Part shown: positions 2,375 to 39,010 of the stretch, piece after piece
Layout: every line of letters starts with the position of its first letter
How positions within the stretch are numbered: the stretch's first letter is position 1
Assembly: GCA_937873385.1 (NCBI GenBank)
Contig: CALMYC010000176.1
Span: forward strand, 1-40,386
Source: an uncultured Flavobacteriales bacterium
Lineage (GTDB): Bacteria; Bacteroidota; Bacteroidia; Flavobacteriales_F; PHOS-HE28
Length of the DNA: 40,386 nucleotides
Direction: 5' to 3'
Translations under genes and position numbers: made by a program
The notes under the pieces: generated by a model
The model's database searches: none
What the model saw: only the letters and a program-made list of their open reading frames with translations
Told to the model about the DNA's origin: nothing

Positions 2375-3145
2375 ATGTGCTACAGCGCCAAAAGCCTGAA
2401 GACCGCCGCCTTGAAGCGCGCCATCCACGACGGCGACAAGGCCGTAGCGGAGCGGCTTCGCGAAGAACTGGAGGAACTTCCCGGACTGGCCGACCGCGTG
2501 TACGTGAACGCCTTCGAGCATCCCGCGCTGGTGGGCTTTACCGATGCGGAACCGTACCGGCCGCAGCTGCTCCACTGGGGGTTGATCCCCGCATGGACCA
2601 AGGATGAAGCGCAGGCCAAAAAACTTCGGGTGCAAACCTTGAATGCACGCGGCGAAACCATCTTCGAGAAGCCCGCATTCCGCAGATCGGCCATGGACAA
2701 GCGTTGCCTGATCTTCGTGAACGGATTCTACGAGCACCAGCACTTCATGAAGCGCACCTATCCATGGTTCATCCATGTAAAGGGACGCGAAGCGTTTGCG
2801 CTGGCGGGCCTGTGGGATGAATGGCGCGATCCGGAAAGCGGGACCGTGCAACGCACCTTCTCCATCGTCACCACGACGGGCAATCCGTTGATGGCGAAGA
2901 TCCACAACAACCCGAAGCTGGACGGCCCGCGCATGCCGCTGATCCTGCCGCCGGAGCTGGAGGATGAATGGCTGAGGCCCATTGCGGATGAACGCGATGT
3001 GGAGCGCATCAAACAACTGGTGCTGCCCTTTCCTGATGAAGAGCTGGAGGCGCACACGGTGCGTCCGCTGCTTGGCAAGGCGGCCGGCGGCGATCCGGAG
3101 AAAGCGAGCGATCCGTTCGAGTATCCGGAGCTGGCGTTTGCGTGA
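2375..3145 (+). CDS. yedK: SRAP domain protein (YedK/HMCES-like abasic-site shield)
   Basis: This 256-residue protein starts MCYSAK, placing the family's catalytic cysteine at position 2 where it becomes the N-terminus after Met removal. Other SRAP signatures are present: HWGLIPAW (residues 67-74), NARGET (90-95) with the conserved Asn, VNGFYEH (115-121) with the catalytic Glu120, and KIHNNP followed by GPRMPLILP (about 175-192) carrying His177 and the RMP block. YedK and HMCES form a thiazolidine crosslink with abasic sites in single-stranded DNA and protect them during replication. The length is normal for Bacteroidota members. It stands alone between the tRNA and the tandem repeat array. 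TAACTTCA, a degenerate -7 box, lies four bases before the ATG. Confidence 0.92.
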   Translation: MCYSAKSLKTAALKRAIHDGDKAVAERLREELEELPGLADRVYVNAFEHPALVGFTDAEPYRPQLLHWGLIPAWTKDEAQAKKLRVQTLNARGETIFEKPAFRRSAMDKRCLIFVNGFYEHQHFMKRTYPWFIHVKGREAFALAGLWDEWRDPESGTVQRTFSIVTTTGNPLMAKIHNNPKLDGPRMPLILPPELEDEWLRPIADERDVERIKQLVLPFPDEELEAHTVRPLLGKAAGGDPEKASDPFEYPELAFA

Positions 3146-3148
3146 GAT

Positions 3149-3634
3149 CTTCTGCATGCTGCAAGGTCCGCTGTGCGAGACCTTGACGGAGCTTGTTTCA
3201 TCAGCGGTCTCCCGAAGGGGACCTTGAGGTCCTGAGTTCTTCTGCATGCTGCAAGGTCCGCTGCGCGAGACCTTGACGGAGCTTGTTCCCTCAGCGGTCT
3301 CCCGAAGGGGACCTTGAGGTCCTGAGTTCTTCCTTCATGCAACGTCCGCTGCGCGAGACCTTGATGGAGCTTGTTCCCACAGCGGTCTCCCGATGGGGAC
3401 ATTGAGGTCCTGAGTTCTTCCTTCATGCAAGGTCCGCTGCGCGAGACCTTGATGGAGCTTGTTCCCTCAGCGGTCTCCCGAAGGGGACCTTGAGGTTTTG
3501 AGATCTTCCTTCATGCAAGGTCCGCTGCGCGAGACCTTGATGGAACTTGTTCCCAAAGCGGTCTCCCGAAGGGGACCTTGAGGTCCTGAGTTCTTCTGCA
3601 TGCTGCAAGGTCCGCTGCGCGAGACCTTGATGGA
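3149..3634 (+). repeat. Tandem array of 88/90-bp units (five full copies and one partial)
   Basis: Units begin with CTTCTGCATGCTGCAAGG or CTTCCTTCATGCAAGG at 3149, 3239, 3329, 3417, 3505 and 3593. The first two spacings are 90 bp and the last three are 88 bp. The final copy stops after about 42 bp, just before operon A. Each unit carries two dyads: CAAGGTC/GACCTTG with a 10-base loop, and GGACCT-TG-AGGTCC near its end. Units differ by a few substitutions and by two interchangeable heads. There are no unique spacers, so this is not CRISPR. Antisense open frames through the array (repeating GLAQRTLHEGR-like peptides) are taken as by-products of a period close to a multiple of three. Confidence 0.95.
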
Positions 3635-4153: not shown

Positions 4154-7100
4154 ATGATCGAACGCATCATCCAATTCTCGGTACGCAACAAGCTCGTCAT
4201 GGGCTTGCTGCTCCTTGCCTTCGCCGGCTGGGGCATCTGGTCCCTTACCCGGCTTTCCATCGACGCCCTGCCGGACGTCACCAACAACCAGGTGCTGGTG
4301 AACACCGTGGCGCCCAACCTGGCCACGCAGGAGGTGGAGCAATTCATCACCTTCCCGCTGGAACAGGCCTTCAAGAACCTGCCCGACCTGGTGGAACTGC
4401 GCAGCGTATCGCGCAGCGGCCTCTCGGTGATCACGGTGGTCTTCAAGGACAACGTGCCGCTCTACCTCACCCGCCAACTGGTGGCCGAGCGGCTGGCCCA
4501 GGTGCAGGAACTGATCCCTGCGGGCTACGGCAAGCCCGAACTGGCACCGCCCACCACCGGCCTGGGCGAGATCTTCCAGTACACCCTTACCGTGGACAGC
4601 GCCCACCACGGCCAGTACAGCCTGATGGAATTGCGCACACTGCAGGACTGGGTAGTGCGCAAGCACGTGCTGGGCGTGCCCGGCGTGATCGACGTGAGCA
4701 GCTTCGGCGGCCTGCTGAAACAGTACGAGGTGAGCGTGGACCCGCGCAAGCTCGCCGGTGCCGGCCTATCCCTGCTCAACGTGTTCACCGCCCTGGAGAA
4801 CAACAACGCCAACACCGGCGGCAGCTACATCGAAAAGGGGCCCAACCTTTACTTCATCCGCGGCGAAGGCGTGATCGGCTCGCTGAAGGACATGGGCAAC
4901 ATCGTGATCGAGGCGCGCGGCGGCAGCCCGGTGCGGGTGCGTGACGTGGGCGAGGTGCGCTTCGGCAACGCCATCCGGTACGGTGCCATGACGCGCAACG
5001 GACAGGGTGAGACCGTGGGCGGCGTGGTGCTGATGATGAAGGGCGCCAACGCCATGCGCACCGTAACGGACGTGAAGGCGCGCATGGCCGAGGTGGAGCA
5101 CAGCCTGCCCGAAGGCGTTTCCGTCGACGTGTTCGTGGACCGCTCCAAGCTGGTGGCCCGCACCATCGGCACCGTGGAGCACAACCTGGGCATGGGCGCG
5201 CTGATCGTGATCGGCGTGCTGCTGCTGCTGCTGGGCAATTGGCGCGCGGGCCTCATCGTGGCCAGCGTGATCCCGCTCTCGCTGCTCTTCGCCATCGGCT
5301 GCATGGTGTTGGCCGGCCAAAGCGCCAATCTCATGAGCATGGGCGCGCTGGACTTCGGCCTGATCGTGGCCGGCGCGGTGATCGTGGTGGAAGGCATGCT
5401 CTTCGCCCTCCACAAACGCCACGCCGGCAGCCTGCTCACCCGGGAAGAGATGAGCGAAGAGACGATCCGCTCGGCGGGCGGCATCATGAAGAGCGCGGTT
5501 TTCGGCCAGGTGATCATCCTCATTGTGTACGTGCCCATCTTCGCCTTGGTGGGCGTGGAAGGCAAGATGTTCCGCCCCATGGCCTGGACCGTCAGCTTCG
5601 CCATCATCGGTGCCCTGCTGCTCAGCATCACGTACGTGCCCTGGGCCGTTTCGCTCTTCATGAACCGGCAGGTGCCCACCGGCGAAAGCTGGAGCGAACG
5701 CCAAGTGCACCGCTTGCAGCAATGGTACGCGCCCCGGCTCCGTTGGCTGCTGCGCCACCGCGTGCCCACCGTGGCCGTCGCCGTCGGCCTGCTGCTGGGC
5801 GCATTGCTGGTGTTCAACCGTCTGGGCGGCGAGTTCATTCCCGAGCTGGACGAAGGTGATTTCGCCACCAACCTCACCATCCGCCAGGGCAGCAGCCTGG
5901 CCCAAAGCATTAAGGTAAGCGACCAGGCGGCGCAGATCCTGCTGCGCGAATTCCCCGAGGTGAAGGAGGTGGTGGGCAAGATCGGCAGCAGCGAGATCCC
6001 CACCGACCCCATGCCCATCGAATCGCAGGACCTGATCATCGTGATGAAGGACCGCAAGGACTGGACCACCACCCGGGACCGCATGAAGATGGCCGAGCTG
6101 ATGAACGACAAGCTGAGCGTGATCCCCGGCATAAACCTCAGCTTTGAACAGCCGATCCAGATGCGTTTCAACGAATTGATCGCCGGGGTGAAGAGCGACA
6201 TTGCCGTGAAGATCTACGGCGACAACCTGGACGAGCTGTTCCGCACGGCGAACGCCGCCGCCGCGCTCATCGCCAAGGTCCCCGGCGCCGCGGACATCCG
6301 GGTGGAGCAGGTAACGGGGATGCCGCAGCTGGTGGTGAAGTACGACCGGGCGCGCATTGCCCAGTACGGACTGAACATCGCCGAGCTGAACCGCGTGCTG
6401 AACACGGCCCTCGCCGGCGGCCGCGCGGGCGTGGTGTACGAGGGCGAACGCCGGTTCGACCTGGTGGTGCGCATGGCCGACATGCGCGATGCCGACCCGG
6501 GCAAAGTGATGAGCCTGCTGGTGCCCCTGCCCGGCAGCAACAAGCAGATCCCCCTGGGCCAGTTGGCGGAAGTAAGCTTCCAAAGCGCGGCCTCCCAGGT
6601 AAGCCGCGAGAACGGTGCGCGGCGCATCGTGGTGGAGGCCAACGTGCGCGGGCGCGACATCCAGAGCACCGCCCAGGACATCCAAGCATCGCTCGACAAG
6701 GACCTGAAGCTGCCCACCGGCTACTTCATCAGCTACGGCGGCACGTTCAAGAACCTGCAGGAGGCCAGTGCCCGGCTGTTGCTCACCGTGCCGCTCGCCA
6801 TGGCCTTGATCTTCGTGCTGCTCTACTTCGCCTTCCGCTCCATCAGCGAAGCGCTCATCATCTTCAGCGCGGTGCCCATGGCGGCCGTGGGCGGCGTGCT
6901 GGCCCTGTGGGTGCGCGGCCTTGATTTCAGCATCAGCGCGGGCATCGGCTTCATCGCGCTCTTCGGTGTGGCGGTGCTCAACGGCATCGTACTGATGAAC
7001 TATTTCAACCACCTGAAGGCCGATGGCGTGGACGACGTGACCGAGCGCGTGGTGCGCGGCACCATGGCCCGGCTGCGGCCGGTGCTGGCCACGGCGGCGG

Positions 7101-8527
7101 TGGCCTCGCTGGGCTTCCTGCCCATGGCCATCAGCACCAGTCCCGGCGCGGAGGTGCAGCGGCCGTTGGCCACCGTGGTGATCGGCGGATTGATCACCTC
7201 CACCCTGCTTACCCTGGCCGTGGTGCCCGTGTTGTACCATCTGGTGTTCCTGCGGAAGAAGCGGAAAAAAGACGATGAAGGGATGGAAGGAGGAACTGCA
7301 AGAGGCCCTTCGGACCCGCCCGGTGGAGGTGCCGGGATCATGCCGGTATCGGTGATTGCGTTGCTGTTCTGCGGCACTTCGCTGCATGCACAAGCCCCTG
7401 TGCTGACACTGGACAGTGCCGTGGCCCGCGCTCTGCGCACCTATCCGGCTATTACGGCCGCAGAGCTGGAGGTGAGGCAGCAGGAAGCCCTGAAGAAGAC
7501 CGCCCTCCAACTGCAGCCGCTCAGCGCGCAACTGCAAGGCGGGCAGATCAACAGCGCCGCGAACGACATCAACCTCCAGGCCACCACGGGCCTCCCCTTT
7601 CCCACGGCCATCGCCCAGCGCAGCCGTTACCTGAAGGAGAGCGTGAAGCTGGCGGAGAGCGACCGGACCCGCATACATGCCGCCGTGCGCGAGAGCGCGG
7701 CGGGCGCCTACCTGCAATGGGCCATGGGGATGGAGCGGGCACGGCTGCTGCAACACAACGACAGCGCGATGCAGACCCTCGCGCTCTTCGCCGCAAGGAA
7801 GTTCGATGCCGGAGCCACCGGCAGATTGGAAAAGGTGAGCGCACAAAGCGCCGCCGACCAGGCCCGGTTGGCCTGGAACCGTTCGCGGTCGGACATCGCC
7901 GTGTATGCCGCCGAGCTGGAGCAATGGACGGGGCCGTTGAACGGGGCGCTTCCGGACAGCGTGCTGCTGCGCAGCTTGTCCATGCAGCCCGATCCCTCCG
8001 CCGGCGCCGCGCCCAACGACCCGGTGCTGGCCACGGCCGCGCAACAGGCCGAGCTGGCGAAGGCGGAATGGAAGATGGAGCGCAGCCAATGGGCGCCCAC
8101 GCTGCAAGGCGGCGGCTTTTACCAGACCATCGACGGCGTTTCGCCGTTCGGCGGCTTTTTGATCGGCACCGCCATCCCCCTGCCCGGCGGTGGCCAAGGA
8201 GCGCGCACCAAGGCGGCCCGCCTGCGCAGCGACATCGCCCGGCAACAACTGGAGGAACTGCGCCGCAGCCGCACCACCGAACTGGCACGCACCCGTGCGC
8301 AATGGGCGCAACTGCACGAAAGCCTGGCCTATTATGAGGGCAACGGGGCCGCACTGGCCGAGGCGCTCCGCCGCGATGCCCAGCGCGCCTACCTGAACGG
8401 CGAAGCCGGCTACGTGGAATTCCTGCAGGGCATGGACCAGGCCCGCACCATCGAAGAAGAGCGCTTGGGCGTGCGCTTCCAGACCGCCCTCACCGTGATC
8501 CACCTCAACGCCCTGACGGGGCAGTAA
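4154..8527 (+). CDS. czcA: CzcA-type heavy-metal RND pump fused to a TolC-like outer-membrane factor (copy A)
   Basis: This 1457-residue protein combines an HME-RND transporter (about residues 1-1045) with an outer-membrane factor (about 1080-1457). RND evidence: an N-terminal TM helix and then SIDALPDVTNNQV, the porter-domain block QPIQMRFNELIAGVKSD, and GGLITSTLLTLAVVPVLYH at the end of TM12. The OMF part has two coiled-coil repeats and QGGGFYQTIDG. CzcA/CusA proteins export divalent or monovalent metal ions using the proton gradient. TM4 is odd: the normal DFGxIVDGAVxxVE pattern reads DFGLIVAGAVIVVE, so the second Asp is Ala406 while Asp400 and Glu413 remain. The junction has a hydrophobic stretch ending SLHA-QA (Ala1079), resembling a signal-peptidase I site. 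CzcB follows 41 bp downstream. The long open frames on the opposite strand are a composition artefact. Confidence 0.93.
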   Translation: MIERIIQFSVRNKLVMGLLLLAFAGWGIWSLTRLSIDALPDVTNNQVLVNTVAPNLATQEVEQFITFPLEQAFKNLPDLVELRSVSRSGLSVITVVFKDNVPLYLTRQLVAERLAQVQELIPAGYGKPELAPPTTGLGEIFQYTLTVDSAHHGQYSLMELRTLQDWVVRKHVLGVPGVIDVSSFGGLLKQYEVSVDPRKLAGAGLSLLNVFTALENNNANTGGSYIEKGPNLYFIRGEGVIGSLKDMGNIVIEARGGSPVRVRDVGEVRFGNAIRYGAMTRNGQGETVGGVVLMMKGANAMRTVTDVKARMAEVEHSLPEGVSVDVFVDRSKLVARTIGTVEHNLGMGALIVIGVLLLLLGNWRAGLIVASVIPLSLLFAIGCMVLAGQSANLMSMGALDFGLIVAGAVIVVEGMLFALHKRHAGSLLTREEMSEETIRSAGGIMKSAVFGQVIILIVYVPIFALVGVEGKMFRPMAWTVSFAIIGALLLSITYVPWAVSLFMNRQVPTGESWSERQVHRLQQWYAPRLRWLLRHRVPTVAVAVGLLLGALLVFNRLGGEFIPELDEGDFATNLTIRQGSSLAQSIKVSDQAAQILLREFPEVKEVVGKIGSSEIPTDPMPIESQDLIIVMKDRKDWTTTRDRMKMAELMNDKLSVIPGINLSFEQPIQMRFNELIAGVKSDIAVKIYGDNLDELFRTANAAAALIAKVPGAADIRVEQVTGMPQLVVKYDRARIAQYGLNIAELNRVLNTALAGGRAGVVYEGERRFDLVVRMADMRDADPGKVMSLLVPLPGSNKQIPLGQLAEVSFQSAASQVSRENGARRIVVEANVRGRDIQSTAQDIQASLDKDLKLPTGYFISYGGTFKNLQEASARLLLTVPLAMALIFVLLYFAFRSISEALIIFSAVPMAAVGGVLALWVRGLDFSISAGIGFIALFGVAVLNGIVLMNYFNHLKADGVDDVTERVVRGTMARLRPVLATAAVASLGFLPMAISTSPGAEVQRPLATVVIGGLITSTLLTLAVVPVLYHLVFLRKKRKKDDEGMEGGTARGPSDPPGGGAGIMPVSVIALLFCGTSLHAQAPVLTLDSAVARALRTYPAITAAELEVRQQEALKKTALQLQPLSAQLQGGQINSAANDINLQATTGLPFPTAIAQRSRYLKESVKLAESDRTRIHAAVRESAAGAYLQWAMGMERARLLQHNDSAMQTLALFAARKFDAGATGRLEKVSAQSAADQARLAWNRSRSDIAVYAAELEQWTGPLNGALPDSVLLRSLSMQPDPSAGAAPNDPVLATAAQQAELAKAEWKMERSQWAPTLQGGGFYQTIDGVSPFGGFLIGTAIPLPGGGQGARTKAARLRSDIARQQLEELRRSRTTELARTRAQWAQLHESLAYYEGNGAALAEALRRDAQRAYLNGEAGYVEFLQGMDQARTIEEERLGVRFQTALTVIHLNALTGQ

Positions 8528-17725: not shown

Positions 17726-17900
17726 CCTTGTACAAGTTGTGCCGAAGCTACCAGTTCCGCATCAACTCCCAAGCACTTGGCGCACTGTACAAGCGATTTG
17801 ATTCCGTCCATTTGGTCGATGACCTGAGTGGTGCCGGATCTGGCTAGGATCAACTCCGGGCACCTTTGGACGGTGATCGCATTTCGCGTAAGGGACAGCA

Positions 17901-18027
17901 GCGGCAGCCCGGCGCAGGCGTAGCCTTGCGGGCGCGTGCAACGAGGAGGCACGACGAAGGAGTGACCCCGCAGTGCCGCGACCGCTGGCCACGACAAGCC
18001 GGCTAAAGTCCCGGCTCAAAGGCCGGG
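17901..18027 (+). repeat. Dispersed repeat, copy 1 (second copy inverted at 33355-33492)
   Basis: From GCGGCAGCCCGGCGC to CCCGGCTCAAAGGCCGGG this stretch aligns along its whole length with the reverse complement of 33355-33492. Shared blocks include CGAGGAGGC..ACGAAGGAG, CCGCTGGCC and CGGCTAAAG. An exact 17-base core (17943-17959) recurs a third time at 32116-32132. It contains local inverted repeats (CCCGGCTCAAAGGCCGGG). It looks like a non-autonomous intergenic element. Confidence 0.7.
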
Positions 18028-20555: not shown

Positions 20556-20921
20556 ATGGGCCTCTCCAAGCACGACGAGTTCACCGTGCGCGACAACCGC
20601 ATCGCGCGCTATGCCAAGGCGCTGGCGCACCCGGCCCGCGTCGCCATCCTGCGCTTCCTCATCCAAAAGCGCAGCTGCGTGTGCGGCGACATCGTGGAGG
20701 AACTGCCCCTCGCACAGAGCACGGTGAGCCAGCATTTGAAGGAACTGAAGGCCGCCGGGCTGATCCAGGGCGAGATCGAGGGCACCACCGTGTGCTACTG
20801 CATCGACCCAAAGGCCTGGGCCATGGCCAAGCAGCAGTTCGGCGGCCTGCTCGAAAGCTTCATCGACGGCAGTGGCGGCTGCTGCCCACCGACCAAACCA
20901 ACGATCGCAACCAAACGATAA
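20556..20921 (+). CDS. arsR: ArsR-family metalloregulator
   Basis: This 121-residue winged-helix repressor has [13 protein letters not shown], then [12 protein letters not shown] with a Cys-x-Cys pair at the position of the arsenite-binding ELCVCDL motif. The recognition helix is [18 protein letters not shown], followed by the wing [12 protein letters not shown], which adds two more cysteines. The C-terminal tail has a Cys-Cys pair (SGGCCPP). ArsR proteins repress their operon and release DNA on binding trivalent arsenic. The stop is four bases before arsM, so the two are cotranscribed and the operon is probably self-regulated. A -7 box is present at 20528. Confidence 0.92.
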
Positions 20922-20925
20922 AGAA

Positions 20926-21795
20926 ATGAAAACCACGGAAGACATCAAACGGACGGTGCGCGAGAAATACGCCGAGATCGCCCAGCAGGACCGCGCCGAC
21001 AACGCCGCCTCCTGCTGCGGCAGCGGAGGTTGCAGCACCGAGGTGTACAACATCATGACCGACGACTACGCCGGGCTGAAGGGCTACGCGCCTGATGCCG
21101 ACCTCGGCTTGGGCTGCGGCCTGCCCACGCAGTTCGCAGGCATCAAGCCGGGCGATACCGTCCTGGACCTCGGCTCCGGCGCCGGCAACGATTGCTTCGT
21201 GGCGCGCCACGAGACCGGCCCCGACGGCCGCGTGATCGGCGTGGACTTCACACCGGAGATGATCGCCAAGGCACGCACCAACGCGCAACAGCTCGGCTTC
21301 GCCAACGTGGAGTTCCGCGAAGGCGACATTGAGCAACTGCCCCTGAGCGATGCCATGGTGGACGTGGTGGTGAGCAACTGCGTGCTGAACCTGGTGCCGG
21401 ACAAGGAAAAGGCATTCCGCGAGATCCTTCGCGTGCTCCGGCCCGGCGGCCACTTCAGCATCAGCGACGTGGTCCTGCATGGCCAACTGCCCGCCAACAT
21501 GCAACAGGCCGCGGAGATGTACGCCGGATGCGTCTCCGGCGCATTGCAGGAGAGCGATTACCTCGGCATCATCCACCAACTGGGCTTTGCCGAAGTGACC
21601 GTGCAAAAGCGCAAGGCCATCATTGTGCCGGACGACATCCTGGCCAGCTACCTCACTGCAGAGGAACTCGCCGCGTTCAAGGCCAGCGGCACGGGCATCT
21701 TCAGCATTACCGTATCGGCTACCAAGCCGGTGGTGAGGATCGGAAAGGAAGAATTGAAGTCGGCTTGCTGCGGGAGCGGGAGTTCCTGCTGCTGA
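20926..21795 (+). CDS. arsM: Arsenite S-adenosylmethionine methyltransferase (ArsM)
   Basis: This 289-residue enzyme methylates As(III) to methylated and volatile arsenicals. It has the SAM motif VLDLGSGAGND (residues 79-89) and three cysteines in the contexts conserved in ArsM: LGCGLPT (Cys64), VSNCVLNL (Cys152) and YAGCVSGAL (Cys202). The ATG at 20926 is preferred because residues upstream are only the antiphase arsR tail. Extra cysteine clusters occur at both ends: SCCGSGGC (29-36) and a terminal ACCGSGSSCC. The terminal motif may bind arsenic or be post-translationally relevant, which is inference. It sits between arsR and arsC on one strand. Confidence 0.94.
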   Translation: MKTTEDIKRTVREKYAEIAQQDRADNAASCCGSGGCSTEVYNIMTDDYAGLKGYAPDADLGLGCGLPTQFAGIKPGDTVLDLGSGAGNDCFVARHETGPDGRVIGVDFTPEMIAKARTNAQQLGFANVEFREGDIEQLPLSDAMVDVVVSNCVLNLVPDKEKAFREILRVLRPGGHFSISDVVLHGQLPANMQQAAEMYAGCVSGALQESDYLGIIHQLGFAEVTVQKRKAIIVPDDILASYLTAEELAAFKASGTGIFSITVSATKPVVRIGKEELKSACCGSGSSCC

Positions 21796-21864
21796 AGTAG
21801 GGCGCCAGGGTGCAGGCAAGATCAACTGCACTCGGGCACCATCACGGACCCTCTTGGATCTTCC

Positions 21865-22290
21865 ATGCCTGCGCCACGCATGCGCATCCTGGTCCTCTGT
21901 ACCGGCAATAGCTGCCGCAGCCAAATGGCCGAAGGCTACCTGCGCCACTTCATCGGCGAGAAAGCTGAGGTAGTGAGTGCCGGCACGGAGATGCACGGCT
22001 TGAACCCGATGGCAGTGAAAGTGATGGCCGAGGACGGCATCGACATCAGCGGACACCATAGCAAAGTGGTGGACCAAGTGATCGATCGCCCGTACGACCT
22101 GGTGATCACCGTGTGCGACCGGGCCCGCGAGCATTGTCCATACCTGCCTGGGCCTGCCATGCGCATCCACAACAGCTTTCCCGACCCCACACAGGCCACC
22201 GGCACTGAACATGAGGTGCTCACCGTGTTCCGCCACACCCGGGACCTGATCAAACACTTTTGCCAGCACATCACACGAGACTTGTACTGA
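21865..22290 (+). CDS. arsC: Arsenate reductase, LMW-phosphatase-like (thioredoxin-coupled ArsC)
   Basis: This 141-residue protein has the CX5R phosphatase loop LCTGNSCRSQMAEG (nucleophile Cys12, Arg18). Further on VCDRAREHCPYLPG supplies Cys84 and Cys91, spaced like the redox relay of Staphylococcus-type ArsC, and SFPDPTQA supplies the general-acid Asp107. It would reduce As(V) to As(III), the substrate of ArsM. The gene begins 69 bp after arsM. The alternative start at residue 6 (MRILVL) is equally plausible. No arsenite efflux pump (Acr3/ArsB) follows in this window. Confidence 0.92.
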   Translation: MPAPRMRILVLCTGNSCRSQMAEGYLRHFIGEKAEVVSAGTEMHGLNPMAVKVMAEDGIDISGHHSKVVDQVIDRPYDLVITVCDRAREHCPYLPGPAMRIHNSFPDPTQATGTEHEVLTVFRHTRDLIKHFCQHITRDLY

Positions 22291-27063: not shown

Positions 27064-28071
27064 TCAAGACAAGTCACACTCATACGGCCCCATGAACCTC
27101 GGCCCGTTCAAGTGCTGCAAGTGCTCTGGGCGATCAGCTGTCCACACTTCCGTTTCGTAGGCGATCTGGTCCGCGTATTTCGCATGGGCCTTCCGTGTGA
27201 GGAAAGCAGTGACATAGACAATGCCCGCCTTGCAGCCCTTGAGCAGCTTCTTCAACTCCATCAGCCGCAGTTCGCTGATCGGACCGGAGCTGTGCACCGC
27301 CTCGATCACATAGAGCCACTTCTTAGACTTGCTGTAGGCGATGATGTCCGGAAGCTCATCGTGTGACAAGTCGAAGAAACCAAGCTCCTTCAAGCGTTCG
27401 CGTTCAATGTGCAGGAGCTTGTTCGATGTGTCGCCGACATACAACACCTCGGCTCCATAACCCCAAAGCGGAAGGAACTGCTCGATGATCGCCTTCTGAA
27501 GTTCGTTGTGCTTGCCCAACGACAGTTCGAGCTTCCCTCCTCCGGGAAGGGTAACTGGAATGCGCTCCATGTCTCGCTTGCGCAAGAGCGATTCGGTAAG
27601 GCTCGGGCGGTTCTTGTTGAAAGCCTCCAAGTTCTTGGCCCATGCCGGTGTGCCGTAAGTCCTGATGAGCGCGGCGAAGTCCGGCGCAAGCGCGTAGCCG
27701 CGCGTGGGGTCATTTGTCGCACGGCCCGGATTATCGCCACTGTTCACGATCAAGCCTGCGACAACGGCCAACTTCAAGTCCTTCCGGCGCACATCGTCAT
27801 ACGAACCCGACGAAATGTTCTCCTCGAAGTGCTTGTTGACGAACGGTATCACTTCGCGGGTCTTCAAGTGCCGGCCGTCCTGAGTACTCTTGGCATCGCT
27901 CCACTTCTTTGTGACACCCGCCACGGCCAACATGCAAGCGGCCATGCGCTCGCGACGTCGGATGGGCTCGGTCGCGGCCGGAATGCCAACCGAGATCAGG
28001 ATGTCCAAGGCTTCGTTCAGCACACGCTTGACAGCGGTGCTCTTGGTACTCTCAGCCAAATGATCCTTCAT
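27064..28071 (-). CDS. BsuBI/PstI-family type II restriction endonuclease
   Basis: This 335-residue protein has an N-terminal helical region of about 180 residues (RRRERMAACMLAVAGVTKKW). Its C-terminal catalytic domain is typical of BsuBI/PstI enzymes: EVLYVGDTSNKLLHIE (about residue 209), DELPDIIAYSKSKKWLYVIEAVHSSGPI (PD...E-x-V nuclease core with Asp and Glu), GIVYVTAFLTRKAHAKYADQ, and the terminal HLNGPRFMGPY. PstI and BsuBI cut CTGCAG; whether this protein has the same specificity is unknown. Its ATG shares a base with the methyltransferase TGA (TGATG), so synthesis of the nuclease depends on translation of the methyltransferase. Confidence 0.92.
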   Translation of the reverse strand: MKDHLAESTKSTAVKRVLNEALDILISVGIPAATEPIRRRERMAACMLAVAGVTKKWSDAKSTQDGRHLKTREVIPFVNKHFEENISSGSYDDVRRKDLKLAVVAGLIVNSGDNPGRATNDPTRGYALAPDFAALIRTYGTPAWAKNLEAFNKNRPSLTESLLRKRDMERIPVTLPGGGKLELSLGKHNELQKAIIEQFLPLWGYGAEVLYVGDTSNKLLHIERERLKELGFFDLSHDELPDIIAYSKSKKWLYVIEAVHSSGPISELRLMELKKLLKGCKAGIVYVTAFLTRKAHAKYADQIAYETEVWTADRPEHLQHLNGPRFMGPYECDLS

Positions 28072-29087
28072 CAGAACAGCGTTAGCTCCCGATTCGCCTT
28101 CACCTTGCTCCGCTTGATCGCCTTCGCATCACCTTCGGGAAGCGCATAGCACGCTTTGATCGACTGCGCGAGGTGGTAGGCCAACATCGGCGGAACCGCG
28201 TTGCCTATCTGGTTGAACTGGTTCGTCTCGTTGCCCTTGAACTCAAAGTGGTCCGGAAAGCTTTGCAGCCGTGCTGCTTCACGAACGATCACACGGCGAC
28301 GGCGTCCATCCGGCAAGCGAACGCGGTGCATGTCGCCCGTAGCACCCGCGAGGTTGCGGCATGTCAGTGTGCGGGCCGGACGATCGGGATAGAGGTCGCG
28401 CGGGTTGATGCAGTGCGACGCCTTCTCGTACTTCGCCACATACGCGTCCATTGTGGCATTCAGGAATTTGCTCTCAGGCGGAACGGTGTGCATCAGATCG
28501 CCGATGGCCTCGCCCACGGTGATCCGGTGTTTCTCCTTGGCCGGGAAGCTGAACGAAGAACGATGTCCCACAACGAACAAGCGCTCACGGTTCTGTGGCA
28601 CTCCGTGGTTCACTGCGTTAAGCAACTTGTAATCGACCAAGTAGCCCAGCTTCTGGAACTCCTCCAAGATCAGCTCGAAGTACCACTTGTTGCTATACAG
28701 CAGGCCGCGCACGTTCTCGAACATGAAGACCTTCGGCTGAAGGCGCTTCACAGCATCGATGAAGATGGGGAAGCCGTCGCGGGCATCCTCCATGCCGCGC
28801 TGGTGGCCGCCAACACTAAAGGGCTGGCACGGCGGGCCACCGATCACGATGTCGGCCTGTGGAAAGTCGAAGCCGACTTCCAACTTCACCGCGTAGCACT
28901 CGCTACCCAGGTTGTGGCGGTAGCTCTCAGCCGCTGGTCCGTCCATCTCGAAGCCGATGGTCTTGAAGCCAGCGGCCTCGAAGCCCAAGGCCAAGCCGCC
29001 GCAGCCCGCGAAGAGGTCGAGGACCACGGCCTGTTCGGTGTGGCATGGCACCAGCAGTTCATTGATTTCTTCGAGGTAGGGCATCAT
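28071..29087 (-). CDS. DNA (cytosine-5) methyltransferase of a type II R-M system
   Basis: This 338-residue enzyme has C5-MTase motif I (LDLFAGCGGLALGFEAAGF), motif IV with the catalytic cysteine (GGPPCQPFSVGG), motif VI (ENVRG), motif VIII (NHGVPQNRERLFVVG) and motif X (NQIGNAVPPMLAYHLA). The target-recognition region lies between VIII and IX (about residues 190-260) and ends in RTLTCRNLAGATGDMH. It methylates C5 of cytosine in the recognition site to protect host DNA. The frame is open to 29216, but ATG 29087 or 29084 fits the family N-terminus. The REase overlaps by one base. The promoter must lie in the 139 bp shared with the divergent kinase gene. Confidence 0.95.
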   Translation of the reverse strand: MMPYLEEINELLVPCHTEQAVVLDLFAGCGGLALGFEAAGFKTIGFEMDGPAAESYRHNLGSECYAVKLEVGFDFPQADIVIGGPPCQPFSVGGHQRGMEDARDGFPIFIDAVKRLQPKVFMFENVRGLLYSNKWYFELILEEFQKLGYLVDYKLLNAVNHGVPQNRERLFVVGHRSSFSFPAKEKHRITVGEAIGDLMHTVPPESKFLNATMDAYVAKYEKASHCINPRDLYPDRPARTLTCRNLAGATGDMHRVRLPDGRRRRVIVREAARLQSFPDHFEFKGNETNQFNQIGNAVPPMLAYHLAQSIKACYALPEGDAKAIKRSKVKANRELTLF

Positions 29088-29226
29088 GCGGTGCCGATTT
29101 CCTTGGCGAGTGGCAAAGTAAGTCACCGGACTGTGGAAAACTCGGGTACAAGGCGACAGGATTCCAGTTATCTTGTGAACTTCGATTTCGACGGAATTTT
29201 CGACACTAAAATGCAACTAATGAACT
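29088..29226. promoter_or_regulatory. Divergent regulatory region between the R-M genes and the kinase-TPR pair
   Basis: The 139-bp gap is AT-richer than the flanks and must hold promoters for both directions. TTTCGAC is repeated directly (GATTTCGACGGAATTTTCGAC, about 29180-29205), a possible operator. No clear TAnnTTTG box and no separate controller gene is seen. Confidence 0.4.
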
Positions 29227-30291
29227 ATGGCTACGCCGAACGTTGATCAGACCAATGCGGCCCACCACCTCCTCGGCCGCACCCTCTCCTCAGGCTGGAA
29301 GGTGGTGGAGAAGTTGTCCAAGCCAGCCTCAGCAACTGGATCTTTCTTCTCTGTGAGTTACAAAGTTGAAAAGGATGGGCGGGTTTGCTTTCTCAAGGCC
29401 TTTGACTTTGGACGATTCTTTCAGCAGCGCGTTCCAGGACAAAGTGTGATGGACGTTATGTCCGAAATGATTGATGCCTTTCGGTATGAGCGTGATCTTT
29501 CTACGCTATGCAAGAAAGGACACGTGACTAAGGTGGCATTCGTGCTCGATTCTGGCGAAGAGTCGGTCATTGACCATAGTGTCGCGGTAGTTCCATTCCT
29601 GATATTCGATTTAGCTGACGGCGACGTGAGGTCACGAATGGATTTTTCACAGGACCTTGATATCGCATGGCGCCTGAAGTCATTGCACGACATGGCAGTG
29701 GGTCTCAAGCAGCTTCATTGTATTGGGGTATCCCACCAAGATGTGAAGCCCTCAAATGTTCTGTTGTTCGATAAGGCAACAAAGCTCGGTGACCTCGGAC
29801 GCTCCGTTTGCGATCAAATGGAAGGCCCCCACTCAAATCAGGACTTCTCAGGTGACTACAACTACGCCCCACCCGAAATCATGTACAGTTACTGCGCCTC
29901 GGAATGGTATGCACGGGTCAAGGCAACTGACTGCTATCTCCTAGGAAGCATGATTGTGTACTACTTCTGTGGTGTAAGTATGTCCGCGTTACTAATGAAG
30001 CACGTGCCCGAGGCGTTCCGATGGGAGCGCTGGCGAGGGCACAGCGATGAGGTGATGCCCTATCTAATGGAAGCGTTCAGCCAAGCTCTTGATGAGTTTC
30101 GTACACATGTGAACGTCAATGGGCTACAGGACGACCTTTCTAACCTGCTTGAGCAGCTCTGTGATCCACGACCGGAGAGACGCGGTCATCCCAAGACAAT
30201 TGCGTCCATTGCCGATAACTATAATCTTGAACGCTTCGTGGCGAGATTTGACTTGCTGTATACAAGATTCCAGTATCTGAAACTCAACTGA
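29227..30291 (+). CDS. Serine/threonine protein kinase (non-RD, island-encoded)
   Basis: This 354-residue protein has a eukaryotic-like kinase fold. The ATP-anchoring Lys57 lies in VCFLKAFDF, with a likely partner Glu88. The catalytic loop is HQDVKPSN (170-177) with Asp172, Lys174 and Asn177. The metal-binding loop is GDLG (188-191, Asp189), then YAPPE in APE position (217), and ATDCYLLG (Asp235) as subdomain IX. All catalytic residues are present, although the loop is HQD rather than HRD and DLG replaces DFG. The Gly-rich loop is poor. No TM segment or sensor domain is visible. The TPR gene starts one base after the stop, so they form an operon divergent from the R-M genes. Role in defence is inferred from position. 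Confidence 0.85.
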   Translation: MATPNVDQTNAAHHLLGRTLSSGWKVVEKLSKPASATGSFFSVSYKVEKDGRVCFLKAFDFGRFFQQRVPGQSVMDVMSEMIDAFRYERDLSTLCKKGHVTKVAFVLDSGEESVIDHSVAVVPFLIFDLADGDVRSRMDFSQDLDIAWRLKSLHDMAVGLKQLHCIGVSHQDVKPSNVLLFDKATKLGDLGRSVCDQMEGPHSNQDFSGDYNYAPPEIMYSYCASEWYARVKATDCYLLGSMIVYYFCGVSMSALLMKHVPEAFRWERWRGHSDEVMPYLMEAFSQALDEFRTHVNVNGLQDDLSNLLEQLCDPRPERRGHPKTIASIADNYNLERFVARFDLLYTRFQYLKLN

Positions 30292-30292
30292 G

Positions 30293-31840
30293 GTGGCCAA
30301 TTTCTTTCAGCCCCAGGACCGAAGGGTCATTCCCAATTGGCGCTCGTTCCGCAAGACGACCATTCTGGGAGAATTGGACCCGCTGCACACTGGTGGGGCC
30401 AGCCGTGTTACGGGTGCGTTACTGAATGAGTATTTGGAGAGCTGGGGCCACTCGTCCTCCATCATGAGTGCTGCGGACTTGGTCAGTGCGGCGCTGGTCA
30501 ACGGGCACTTCGAGGGCACTGCGGTGGTCGCTGCGGCAGATTACCTTTTAGCCAACCCAAAGGACTCTACACAAGCACAACGGGAAATCGCACGATCGAT
30601 CAAGCGAAACCACCAGGAGAAGAATGCTGGCTTCATGCTGGAGCGCATCACGAGTGCAGTCCTGCACGATTTCATCAAGCGCGACATTGTAGTTCTGCGC
30701 ATCAGAGAGGCTAAGACTCGCTTGCGGAGCTTCCCTAACAACGCAGTGATGTGGGTTGAGCTGTCGCGCTGCTACTCCATCCTCGGCCAAGCTCAACAGG
30801 CCAAACGCGCAATGGAGTGTGCTATTCAACTGGCCCCGAACAACCGCTTCATAGTTCGCTCGGCTGTCCGCTTGTTCACCCACTTTGATGAACTCGAATT
30901 AGCGCATGACGTTATTTCCAAGTCCGGCAACCTCATTCATGACCCATGGCTGCTATCAGCGGACATCGCACTTGCCACACTGCGAGGTCGGAATTCGCGG
31001 CACTTGAAGGCTGGTTTGAAACTGGTAGACTCAACAAGCCTATCACCCTTCAGTCGTACGGAGCTCGCCAGCGCATTGGGTACCGTGCAACTAACCGACG
31101 GAACGCTCAAACAAAGTCGCAAGCTCTTTCAGCTCGCGCTCACTGCGCCTAACGACAACTCACTCGCACAAGCCGAGTGGGCAGTCCGAAAGGAACCTGC
31201 CATCGGGATTAATGTCATTGGTGCAAGCGCTAGGTTCGATTTCGAGGCTTCAGCTCTCGAGGCCTACCAGCAGGGACATTTCGCTGTAGCACTGGATTAC
31301 ACGGCACAATGGTTTCTGGACATGCCGTTTGCCAGACGGCCCGTCATGCTGGGATCTCATATTGCCAGTACTCTACTTAATCAACAGGACGTCTCTATTG
31401 AGTTCTTAAAAGCAGGCTTGGTCTCGCATCCGAACGATCCACAAATCGTGAACAACATAGCATACGCCTTGGCCTTAGATAATAAGCCGGACGAGGCATT
31501 CCATTATCTTCAACGAGTGCGACCACATGAATCCATGGATGAGACAATTAGGGTTTGCCTCTTAGCTACCCGAGGTCTTGTACATTTCAGAAATGGCACT
31601 GTGGAAGTCGGAAGGAAGCTGTACCAACAGGCTATTGACGAATCGAACAGGTTGAAGAAGCCCTATTTCACTCGACTTGCCATGTTGAACTATGCACGCG
31701 AGGAGGTAATGGTCAACTCCGAGTACGTTCCGGAAGTAATGGAACTAGTGGGCATAATACCGGATGACCCTCAGCACGAGGACTTGAAAGAGTTGAAACA
31801 CCAAGTGGATACGTTATTCCAGCAGCTCAAGTCAAAGTGA
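30293..31840 (+). CDS. TPR-repeat protein paired with the kinase
   Basis: This 515-residue protein starts with GTG one base after the kinase TGA. The first 130 residues (NFFQPQDRRVIPNWRSFRKT, LGELDPLHTGG) show no family I know. Tetratricopeptide-like helical pairs follow: MWVELSRCYSILGQAQQAKRAMECAIQLAPN at about 152-182, then ASTLLNQQDVSIEFLKAGLVSHPNDPQIVNNIAYALALDNKPDEAFHYL in part around 365-410, and GLVHFRNGTVEVGRKLYQQA near 440. No nuclease, TM or other enzymatic motif is visible. It is probably the scaffold, sensor or substrate of the kinase. Codon use is AT-richer than the flanks. The 3' end overlaps the chimeric end of the minus-strand antitoxin-like frame. Confidence 0.8.
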   Translation: MANFFQPQDRRVIPNWRSFRKTTILGELDPLHTGGASRVTGALLNEYLESWGHSSSIMSAADLVSAALVNGHFEGTAVVAAADYLLANPKDSTQAQREIARSIKRNHQEKNAGFMLERITSAVLHDFIKRDIVVLRIREAKTRLRSFPNNAVMWVELSRCYSILGQAQQAKRAMECAIQLAPNNRFIVRSAVRLFTHFDELELAHDVISKSGNLIHDPWLLSADIALATLRGRNSRHLKAGLKLVDSTSLSPFSRTELASALGTVQLTDGTLKQSRKLFQLALTAPNDNSLAQAEWAVRKEPAIGINVIGASARFDFEASALEAYQQGHFAVALDYTAQWFLDMPFARRPVMLGSHIASTLLNQQDVSIEFLKAGLVSHPNDPQIVNNIAYALALDNKPDEAFHYLQRVRPHESMDETIRVCLLATRGLVHFRNGTVEVGRKLYQQAIDESNRLKKPYFTRLAMLNYAREEVMVNSEYVPEVMELVGIIPDDPQHEDLKELKHQVDTLFQQLKSK

Positions 31841-32228: not shown

Positions 32229-33312
32229 CTACATATTCCTTCTGTACTGCCCCCCCACCTCAAACATCGCCGCCGTGAGTTGCCCCAGTGAACAATACTT
32301 CGTCGCCTCCATCAGCACCGCGAACATGTTCTCATTCTTGATCGCCGCCTGTTGCAGATCGTGGATCACTTTCTTGCCTTCTTCGGCGTAGGCCTGCTGC
32401 ACGTTCTCCACGGTGTGGATCTGCGCTTCCTTCTCCTCCTCCGTCGCGCGGATCACCTCCTTCGGCAGCACGGTGGGTGAGCCCTTCGAACTGAGGAAGG
32501 TGTTCACGCCGATGACGGGGTATTCTCCGTTGTGCTTCAGCGTTTCGTAGTAGAGGCTTTCCTCTTGGATGCGGCTGCGCTGGTACATGGTCTCCATGGC
32601 GCCGAGCACGCCGCCGCGTTCGGTGATGCGGTCGAACTCCTTCAGCACGGCGTCTTCCACCAGATCGGTGAGCTCTTCGATGATGAAGGAGCCTTGCAGC
32701 GGGTTCTCGTTCTTGGCCAGGCCCAGCTCCTTGTTGATGATGAGCTGGATGGCCATGGCGCGGCGCACGCTTTCCTCGGTGGGCGTGGTGATGGCCTCGT
32801 CGTAGGCGTTGGTGTGCAGGCTGTTGCAGTTGTCGTAGATGGCGTAGAGCGCCTGCAGCGTGGTGCGGATGTCGTTGAAGTCGATCTCCTGCGCGTGGAG
32901 GCTGCGGCCGCTGGTTTGAATGTGGTATTTGAGCATCTGGCTGCGCTCGTCGGCGCCGTAGCGGAGCTTCATGGCCTTGGCCCAGATGCGGCGCGCCACG
33001 CGGCCCATCACGGCATACTCGGGGTCCATGCCGTTGCTGAAGAAGAAGCTCAGGTTGGGCGCGAAGGCGTTGATGTCCATGCCCCGGCTGAGGTAGTACT
33101 CCACGTAGGTGAAGCCGTTGGCCAGGGTGAACGCGAGCTGCGAGATGGGGTTGGCGCCGGCCTCCGCGATGTGGTAGCCGCTGATGCTGACGCTGTAGAA
33201 GTTGCGGACCTTCTTGTCGATGAAGTATTGCTGCACGTCGCCCATCAAGCGCAGCGCGAACCTGCCTGTCCGGTAGGCAGGCTCGGTGCTGAAGATCGTT
33301 GTTCTGCGCCTG
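32229..33312 (-). pseudogene. icmF: 3' fragment of a fused isobutyryl/methylmalonyl-CoA mutase (IcmF-type)
   Basis: The open frame (ATG 33245, 338 residues) reproduces the C-terminal third of IcmF-like mutases: [55 protein letters not shown] and the terminal VGGQYRRNM. Upstream, homology goes on as STE...FALRLMGDV with seven extra codons (PAYRTGR, 33261-33281) made by a palindromic repeat. It then continues as QAQN (33301-33312) out of frame after a 2-base loss at about 33297-33300. Beyond that only repeats are found. A full IcmF of about 1100 residues also has B12-binding and GTPase domains, absent here. It is therefore a relic that cannot form the whole active site. Confidence 0.85.
33261..33281. 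repeat. 21-bp palindromic repeat inserted in the icmF relic
   Basis: CCTGCCTGTCCGGTAGGCAGG is an imperfect palindrome (CCTGCCT...AGGCAGG). It sits between the codons for E and F of the conserved [11 protein letters not shown] sequence and adds seven in-frame codons. Confidence 0.75.
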
Positions 33313-33541
33313 GTGGTTATGCCCGCCCTGAGCTTGTCGAAGGGTTGGGCGTGCCCCGGCTCAAATGCAGCCGGGTCGCGTGCTACGCTTTAGCCGGACT
33401 TGTCAGGGCCAGCGGCTGCGGCACTCCGGGGGCTCCTTCGTCGCCTCCTCGTTGCTCGCATCCGCAAGGCCCTGCCCGCGCCGGGCTGCCGCTTCGCCCG
33501 CTCACGCATAACCCAAGCGCTATCGTACAACGTTGAAAGCC
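33313..33541. other. Repeat-filled interval between the icmF relic and operon B
   Basis: No gene is seen. It contains a CCCTGAGCTTGTCGAAGGG element (33325-33343, the widespread repeat that translates as PELVEG) and the second copy of the dispersed repeat (33355-33492). The remaining bases (33493-33541) lead into the operon B promoter. Confidence 0.7.
33355..33492 (-). repeat. Dispersed repeat, copy 2
   Basis: This is the reverse complement of the element at 17901-18027, matching over nearly the full length with small indels. It lies between the broken icmF end and operon B, which suggests involvement in the rearrangement. Confidence 0.7.

Positions 33542-34687: not shown

Positions 34688-39010
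<4,323 letters not shown>

What the first reader, a model, noticed from the sequence alone, without database searches (positions are those of the whole stretch)
29227..31840. Kinase-TPR gene pair in a restriction-modification island: candidate new defence module
A catalytically complete Ser/Thr kinase (Lys57, HQD172VKPSN, D189LG) and a 515-residue TPR protein are encoded one base apart, divergent from a type II R-M pair. They are AT-richer than the flanks and bounded by broken genes. Kinases are known in phage defence (for example PglW in BREX-like systems and Stk2), but I do not recognise this two-gene kinase-TPR arrangement. The kinase has no membrane segment or sensor, so the TPR protein could be its sensor or substrate. 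The defence role is inferred only from location.
Basis: partly seen in the sequence, partly recalled or inferred. Interest (0 to 1): 0.75.

Follow-up and report, generated by a model that had tools for sequence, protein, structure and literature searches.

The report
Kinase–TPR phage-defence candidate pair (PDC-M71)
Two neighbouring genes, a cytosolic protein kinase and a repeat-scaffold protein, form a rare mobile pair that travels with bacterial anti-virus genes across many phyla; it is already listed in a public database as the untested defence candidate PDC-M71, so it is a new member of a known but uncharacterised kind.

Summary
A complete Ser/Thr kinase (29227-30291) and a 515-aa TPR protein (30293-31840) lie one base apart, divergent from a BsuBI/PstI-type restriction enzyme and a C5 methyltransferase. 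They are the AT-richest 2.6 kb of the window. The claim that the pair is unrecognised is wrong: both proteins match, end to end, the PADLOC candidate PDC-M71 (M71A 2e-145; M71B 1e-174), one of the untested "guilt-by-embedding" candidates.

The pair is real and obligate. In about 50 loci from at least nine phyla, plus plasmids and prophage-like contigs, the kinase sits directly 5' of the TPR gene (52 of 55 gaps between -20 and +22 nt). Kinase-seeded searches return the TPR gene each time, and the two proteins' distances mirror each other (r = 0.88). Neighbours are often defence genes; in several loci the pair lies inside a type I R-M or Hma operon.

Best mechanism (inferred): the TPR protein binds and restrains or targets the kinase; infection frees it, and it phosphorylates cell proteins, causing arrest. 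Sensor, substrate and toxicity are not shown. Disrupted loci have damaged kinases; no intact kinase lacked its TPR, which weakly fits a toxic kinase.

The parts
29227..30291 (+). PDC-M71A: soluble Hanks-type Ser/Thr kinase, 354 aa (K57, E88, HQD172xKPSN, D189LG, APPE, C-terminal CxPxPxRRGHP motif)
   Evidence: PADLOC PDLC04780 2.1e-145; Pkinase 3e-14; catalytic residues conserved in 44-45/45 homologues; AlphaFold2 model pLDDT 92, kinase fold in PDB
30293..31840 (+). PDC-M71B: 515-aa all-helical TPR solenoid with conserved N-terminal RxxxPxWR motif (R10, P14, W16, R17); no catalytic domain
   Evidence: PADLOC PDLC04781 1e-174; TPR matches; R10 and P14 47/47, W16 and R17 43/47; AlphaFold2 model pLDDT 91, generic TPR superhelix matches
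28071..29216 (-). C5-cytosine DNA methyltransferase of the adjacent type II R-M system (divergent; a later ATG near 29088 is a likelier start than the TTG at 29216, by reading)
   Evidence: PF00145 3.4e-65; MTase_II
27064..28071 (-). BsuBI/PstI-family type II restriction endonuclease
   Evidence: PF06616 6e-55, PF17728 2.3e-32; REase_II 6e-82
32229..33248 (-). C-terminal fragment of methylmalonyl-CoA mutase at the right border of the acquired segment
   Evidence: PF01642 profile positions 190-511 only; full-length copy in G000:C54, repeated fragments near the full gene in genus relatives

Best explanation
The pair is a member of PADLOC's candidate anti-phage system PDC-M71, a mobile two-gene module. 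Shown here: the kinase and TPR genes are a tightly linked (mostly overlapping), co-inherited pair and sit near or inside other defence systems. Inferred: the TPR solenoid binds the kinase and acts as its adaptor, sensor and restraint; a phage product or a change in the cell releases or redirects the kinase, which phosphorylates host (or phage) proteins and stops growth or phage replication, an abortive-infection outcome. It travels as cargo of R-M and other defence loci but does not need any particular one. Step-wise confidence: member of PDC-M71 about 0.97; defence function about 0.85; kinase catalysis needed about 0.75; TPR as direct binder and regulator of the kinase about 0.65; toxic-kinase and restraint logic about 0.4.
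For: Full-length HMM matches to both PDC-M71 components. 48 genome loci plus 5 IMG/VR contigs found from the TPR alignment, 3 plasmids found from the window TPR protein; the kinase gene lies directly 5' on the same strand wherever the contig reaches, with gaps of -20 to +22 nt in 52 of 55 loci, most often the 4-nt overlap. Reciprocal: 5 of 5 family-level kinases in IMG/VR, all 3 full-length kinase hits on plasmids, and both Bacteroidota hits carry the TPR gene 3'. Mirror-tree r = 0.88 over 45 loci, 0 of 2000 permutations. Embedding: hsdM-hsdS-pair-hsdR (L017), hsdM-pAgo-like-hsdS-pair-hsdR (L025), HmaA-pair-HmaB (L036) and pair-HmaB (L041); other neighbours include type I and type II MTases, type IIG, Eco29kI, Gabija GajA, long pAgo. 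Prophage neighbours: portal (L070), integrase and CI repressor (L072). No family-level match in 21 other genomes of the same genus. Restraint logic: intact TPR with a broken or dead kinase in L036 (1.3-kb insert), L049 (in-frame stop) and L034 (D172N, K174T, N177S, D189A), and no intact kinase without the TPR gene.
Against: No experiment shows defence by this family. The defence neighbourhood was not measured against a matched control set, so 'enriched' rests on the repeated embedding inside operons. Several loci (L023, L030, L031, L032) have ordinary genes next to the pair. The restraint asymmetry is three cases, and most loci were found from the TPR side, which biases it. L034's dead kinase, if still selected, would argue against catalysis being essential. 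No complex was modelled.
Confidence: 0.55

Rival explanations
1. Classic toxin-antitoxin-like addiction module: the kinase is a toxin that the TPR protein neutralises by binding; its main role is stabilising islands, plasmids and prophages, and any phage defence is a by-product.
For: Two coupled genes, found on plasmids and prophage-like contigs; broken kinase with intact TPR but never the reverse; precedents of toxic kinases in defence, KKP (PMC11341870) and HipAD/DS-6 (PMC13092281).
Against: The TPR protein is large (about 515 aa) and conserved over its full length, unlike most antitoxins; recurrent embedding inside R-M and Hma operons favours defence.
Confidence: 0.25
2. The pair is an accessory of the host defence operon in which it sits: it senses failure or blocking of the R-M, Hma or similar machinery (for example by anti-restriction proteins) and triggers a backup response.
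For: Embedded inside type I R-M and Hma operons and next to type II, IIG and other systems.
Against: Partners are unrelated to one another, and several loci have no recognised defence neighbour among the genes tested, so no fixed partner is required.
Confidence: 0.12
3. Ordinary signalling: a housekeeping or stress Ser/Thr kinase with a TPR adaptor that happens to sit in variable regions.
For: The kinase fold is canonical; TPR matches are generic; some loci have housekeeping neighbours.
Against: Very rare and patchy (2-4 of 395 Bacteroidota; 1 of 398 Pseudomonadota, that one being the centre genome), not found in the rest of the genus, low GC, embedded in defence operons.
Confidence: 0.08

Closest known systems
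PADLOC-DB candidate system PDC-M71 (guilt-by-embedding candidates of Payne et al. 2024, bioRxiv 10.1101/2024.01.29.577857, as cited in PMC12988326)
   Same: Both proteins match their component models over essentially the full length; same two genes, adjacent; defence neighbourhood.
   Different: No difference found. I could not read the preprint or the system's rule file, and no function has been reported in the papers searched.
KKP kinase-kinase-phosphatase module (PMC11341870)
   Same: Ser/Thr kinase used in defence; mobile; kinase toxicity held in check by a partner (the last is inferred here, shown for KKP).
   Different: KKP has two kinases and a phosphatase; here one kinase and a TPR protein without a catalytic domain.
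Stk2 and PD-T4-6 kinase defences
   Same: Single Hanks-type kinase domain implicated in phage defence.
   Different: Single-gene systems; the kinase here matches them only weakly and over part of the domain (Stk2 3.1e-6; PD-T4-6 2e-10).
MADS kinase mad6 and Mokosh MkoA
   Same: Kinase domains in multi-gene defence systems (1.1e-11 and 8.7e-12).
   Different: Those kinases are part of larger proteins with other partner genes; the partner here is the TPR protein.

Membership tests
PDC-M71 (PADLOC candidate) | First protein matches PDC-M71A end to end | tested here: met
   PDLC04780 2.1e-145, residues 7-350 on profile 4-347 of 352
PDC-M71 (PADLOC candidate) | Second protein matches PDC-M71B end to end | tested here: met
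   PDLC04781 1e-174, residues 1-511 of 515
PDC-M71 (PADLOC candidate) | The two genes are adjacent, kinase first | tested here: met
   1-nt gap; same order in all homologous loci with room
PDC-M71 (PADLOC candidate) | Confers phage defence | not testable with these tools
   No experimental report found; [quoted passage not shown]
KKP | Two Ser/Thr kinases plus a phosphatase in one cluster | tested here: not met
   One kinase; partner is a TPR protein; the flanking genes tested are R-M and a mutase fragment
Stk2 | Full-length match to the Stk2 kinase | tested here: not met
   Only 3.1e-6 over about 100 residues
PD-T4-6 | Full-length match to a PD-T4-6 kinase, single gene | tested here: not met
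   Best 2e-10 over part of the kinase domain; obligate TPR partner
MADS | mad6 kinase with other mad genes | tested here: not met
   mad6 match 1.1e-11 over the kinase domain only; the TPR partner and the restriction enzyme gave no mad match
Type II R-M (BsuBI/PstI family) | REase and MTase genes adjacent to, but separate from, the pair | tested here: met
   PF06616/PF17728 and PF00145; no sign that the pair is part of the R-M enzyme
BREX PglW-type kinases | PglW kinase with BREX genes | not tested
   No PglW model was among the 25 best PADLOC matches shown; not examined further

The most novel reading that the evidence does not exclude
PDC-M71 is a plug-in guard: a kinase-TPR unit that monitors whichever defence operon hosts it, or the phage products that block it, through the TPR solenoid and its conserved RxxxPxWR tail, and fires a phosphorylation-based shutdown when the host system fails. 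This would be a kinase counterpart of the exchangeable effector cassettes seen in other immune systems.
Probability: 0.12. Interest if true: 0.7.

Novelty: new member of a known kind. Interest (0 to 1): 0.4.

Why it matters
Few kinase-based phage defences are understood. This pair is catalogued but mechanistically blank. The work here gives it a defined anatomy: obligate pairing, conserved active site, a conserved N-terminal motif on the scaffold, recurrent embedding in unrelated defence operons, and natural kinase-dead examples. That makes its sensor, substrate and toxicity directly testable in a laboratory strain.

Tried and rejected
Single-sequence scans of genome contigs and viral contigs with the window TPR protein found no relatives; the family alignment was needed. 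No match in the phage record collection, with the window protein or a viral-contig homologue; no DNA match of the L070 pair in E. coli complete genomes. Structure search of the TPR model gives only generic superhelices (low TM-scores; tied Z about 12-15 against APC/C, OGT, PEX5, Rap, NprR and AimR), so no specific relative is claimed. A distant kinase-TPR pair in G069 (L019) matches weakly and was kept out of the family. A fused-frame trick to model the complex was not used because the fusion would not be a real protein of the window. The DPWL motif of the TPR protein was not used as evidence because the loci were found with it. A suspected antitoxin remnant between 31840 and 32229 could not be confirmed by similarity.

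Full report
OBSERVATION. The two genes are as described. The kinase is 29227-30291 (+, 354 aa) and the TPR protein 30293-31840 (+, 515 aa, GTG start), one base apart. The kinase matches Pkinase (3e-14) and the partner matches several TPR models; the divergent neighbours are a BsuBI/PstI-family restriction endonuclease (6e-55) and a C5 methyltransferase (3.4e-65). The pair has 52.0% GC against 62.0% for the rest, and 2.6-kb windows overlapping it are the lowest in the window. Neither protein has a convincing membrane segment. The right border is a C-terminal fragment of methylmalonyl-CoA mutase; I found no broken gene on the left.

IDENTITY. Against PADLOC-DB 2.0.0 the kinase matches PDC-M71A (PDLC04780, 2.1e-145, 7-350 on 4-347 of 352) and the TPR protein PDC-M71B (PDLC04781, 1e-174, 1-511 of 515). 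Known kinase defences (MkoA, mad6, PD-T4-6, Stk2) match only the kinase domain, best between about 1e-11 and 3e-6. PDC is the label of candidates found by 'guilt-by-embedding' (Payne et al. [quoted passage not shown]). I found no paper naming PDC-M71 and could not read the preprint.

RECURRENCE. PDC-M71B was found in 4 of 395 genomes of the phylum (one of these, G069, is a weak, distant match, and the window's own genome is counted), the kinase family in 2 of 395 and in 1 of 398 Pseudomonadota, that one being the centre genome. No family-level match turned up in the 21 other genus members searched (only weak generic kinase matches). A scan with the TPR alignment gave 48 loci from Bacteroidota, Pseudomonadota, Acidobacteriota, Planctomycetota, Actinomycetota, Chloroflexota, Spirochaetota, Latescibacterota and Eremiobacterota (many are MAGs, whose names may mislead), and 5 IMG/VR contigs; tblastn with the window TPR protein gave three plasmids of Arthrobacter, Rhizobium and Deinococcus. 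In every locus where the contig reaches far enough, a family kinase lies directly 5' on the same strand; gaps are -20 to +22 nt in 52 of 55 loci, most often a 4-nt overlap. The remaining three are loci with a disrupted reading frame. Starting from the kinase instead, all five family-level IMG/VR loci carry the TPR gene directly 3', as do the three full-length plasmid hits; generic kinases of relatives do not. Distances between kinases and between TPR proteins correlate at r = 0.88 over 45 loci (0 of 2000 permutations). The TPR tree mixes phyla, consistent with transfer.

CONTEXT. In L017 (Bacteroidota) the order is hsdM-hsdS-kinase-TPR-hsdR on one strand (gene names by reading, supported by the Pfam and PADLOC tallies for the homologous L025). 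In L025 it is hsdM-pAgo-like-hsdS-kinase-TPR-hsdR. In L036 the pair lies between HmaA and HmaB; in L041 it lies 10 bp upstream of HmaB. L021 has type I R and M genes just upstream; L026 a type II MTase; L060 Eco29kI REase plus C5 MTase; L062 a type IIG enzyme; L058 GajA; L049 a long pAgo; L022 a PD-T4-6/mad6-like kinase; L037 a HerA/mad8-like protein; L065 a BrxH/SngC-like helicase. L070 lies near a phage portal gene, L072 next to an integrase and a CI repressor. Other loci have ordinary neighbours (L023, L030, L031, L032). No matched control was run, so the repeated embedding inside other systems' operons is the main argument.

ANATOMY. Catalytic residues K57, E88, H170, D172, K174, N177 and D189 are conserved in 44-45 of 45 kinases; the exception, L034, has lost D172, K174, N177, D189 and G191. 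The TPR protein has no catalytic domain by Pfam; its model (pLDDT 91) is an all-helical solenoid with only generic TPR matches. Its N-terminus carries RxxxPxWR (R10 and P14 47/47, W16 and R17 43/47), and R185, R189 and R193 lie on one helix four residues apart. The kinase model (pLDDT 92) is a canonical protein kinase.

MECHANISM. Obligate coupling, co-inheritance and a non-catalytic partner suggest that the two proteins form a complex in which the TPR protein regulates or targets the kinase (inferred). Disrupted loci lean one way: an intact TPR gene with a kinase broken by a 1.3-kb insertion (L036), by an in-frame stop (L049), or dead at the active site (L034), while L037 has both frames broken and an IS-truncated kinase remnant sits alone on Deinococcus pDrdB. 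No intact kinase lacked the TPR gene. This fits a harmful kinase restrained by the TPR protein, but the sample is small and TPR-biased. With precedents such as KKP (PMC11341870) and HipAD/DS-6 (PMC13092281), the best reading is an infection-triggered kinase that shuts the cell down.

VERDICT. The mechanism remains open.

Noticed in passing
window 32229-33248; L081, L082, L083, L084, L087, L088: C-terminal fragments of methylmalonyl-CoA mutase recur in genus relatives, often near the full gene, linked to a CzcA efflux cluster; many share the same end (window position about 32231), and the cargo to one side varies (a PIN-like pair in G009, TIR-like and caspase-like ORFs in G019 by reading; R-M plus the kinase-TPR pair here). 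Looks like a recombination or integration hot spot at the mutase 3' end.
   Followed up: partly
L081, L082, L084, L087 (window positions 32746/32751 and 32983/32988): Mutase fragments of several relatives are interrupted at the same two positions by insertions of about 190 bp.
   Followed up: no
window 17900-18008 and 33388-33493: Inverted repeat of about 110 bp, 84% identical; copies also in L083 and L086, possibly a small mobile element.
   Followed up: no
L034 8910-9998: Bacteroidales homologue is a pseudokinase (D172N, K174T, N177S, D189A, G191S) still paired with an intact TPR gene.
   Followed up: partly
L025 3905-14796: Type I R-M operon that holds two inserted modules, a pAgo-like gene and the kinase-TPR pair.
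   Followed up: no
L019 7899-11226: Distant kinase-TPR pair followed by a small membrane-like protein gene; weak matches to both family models, may be a sister family.
   Followed up: no
L091 5986-6507 (Deinococcus wulumuqiensis pDrdB): Kinase gene cut in half next to an IS6 element, with the TPR gene lost; the intact pair is on a related Deinococcus plasmid.
   Followed up: yes
window 4259-8237 and 34688-39010: Segments of the czcA-type efflux gene at 34688-39010 match 4259-8237 at 74-81% DNA identity, so two related efflux regions lie in one window, with an arsenic-resistance-like cluster (ArsR-, ArsM- and ArsC-like ORFs, by reading) at 20556-22290.
   Followed up: no
window 3143-3634: Self-similarity at offsets of about 89 bp indicates a tandem repeat.
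   Followed up: no
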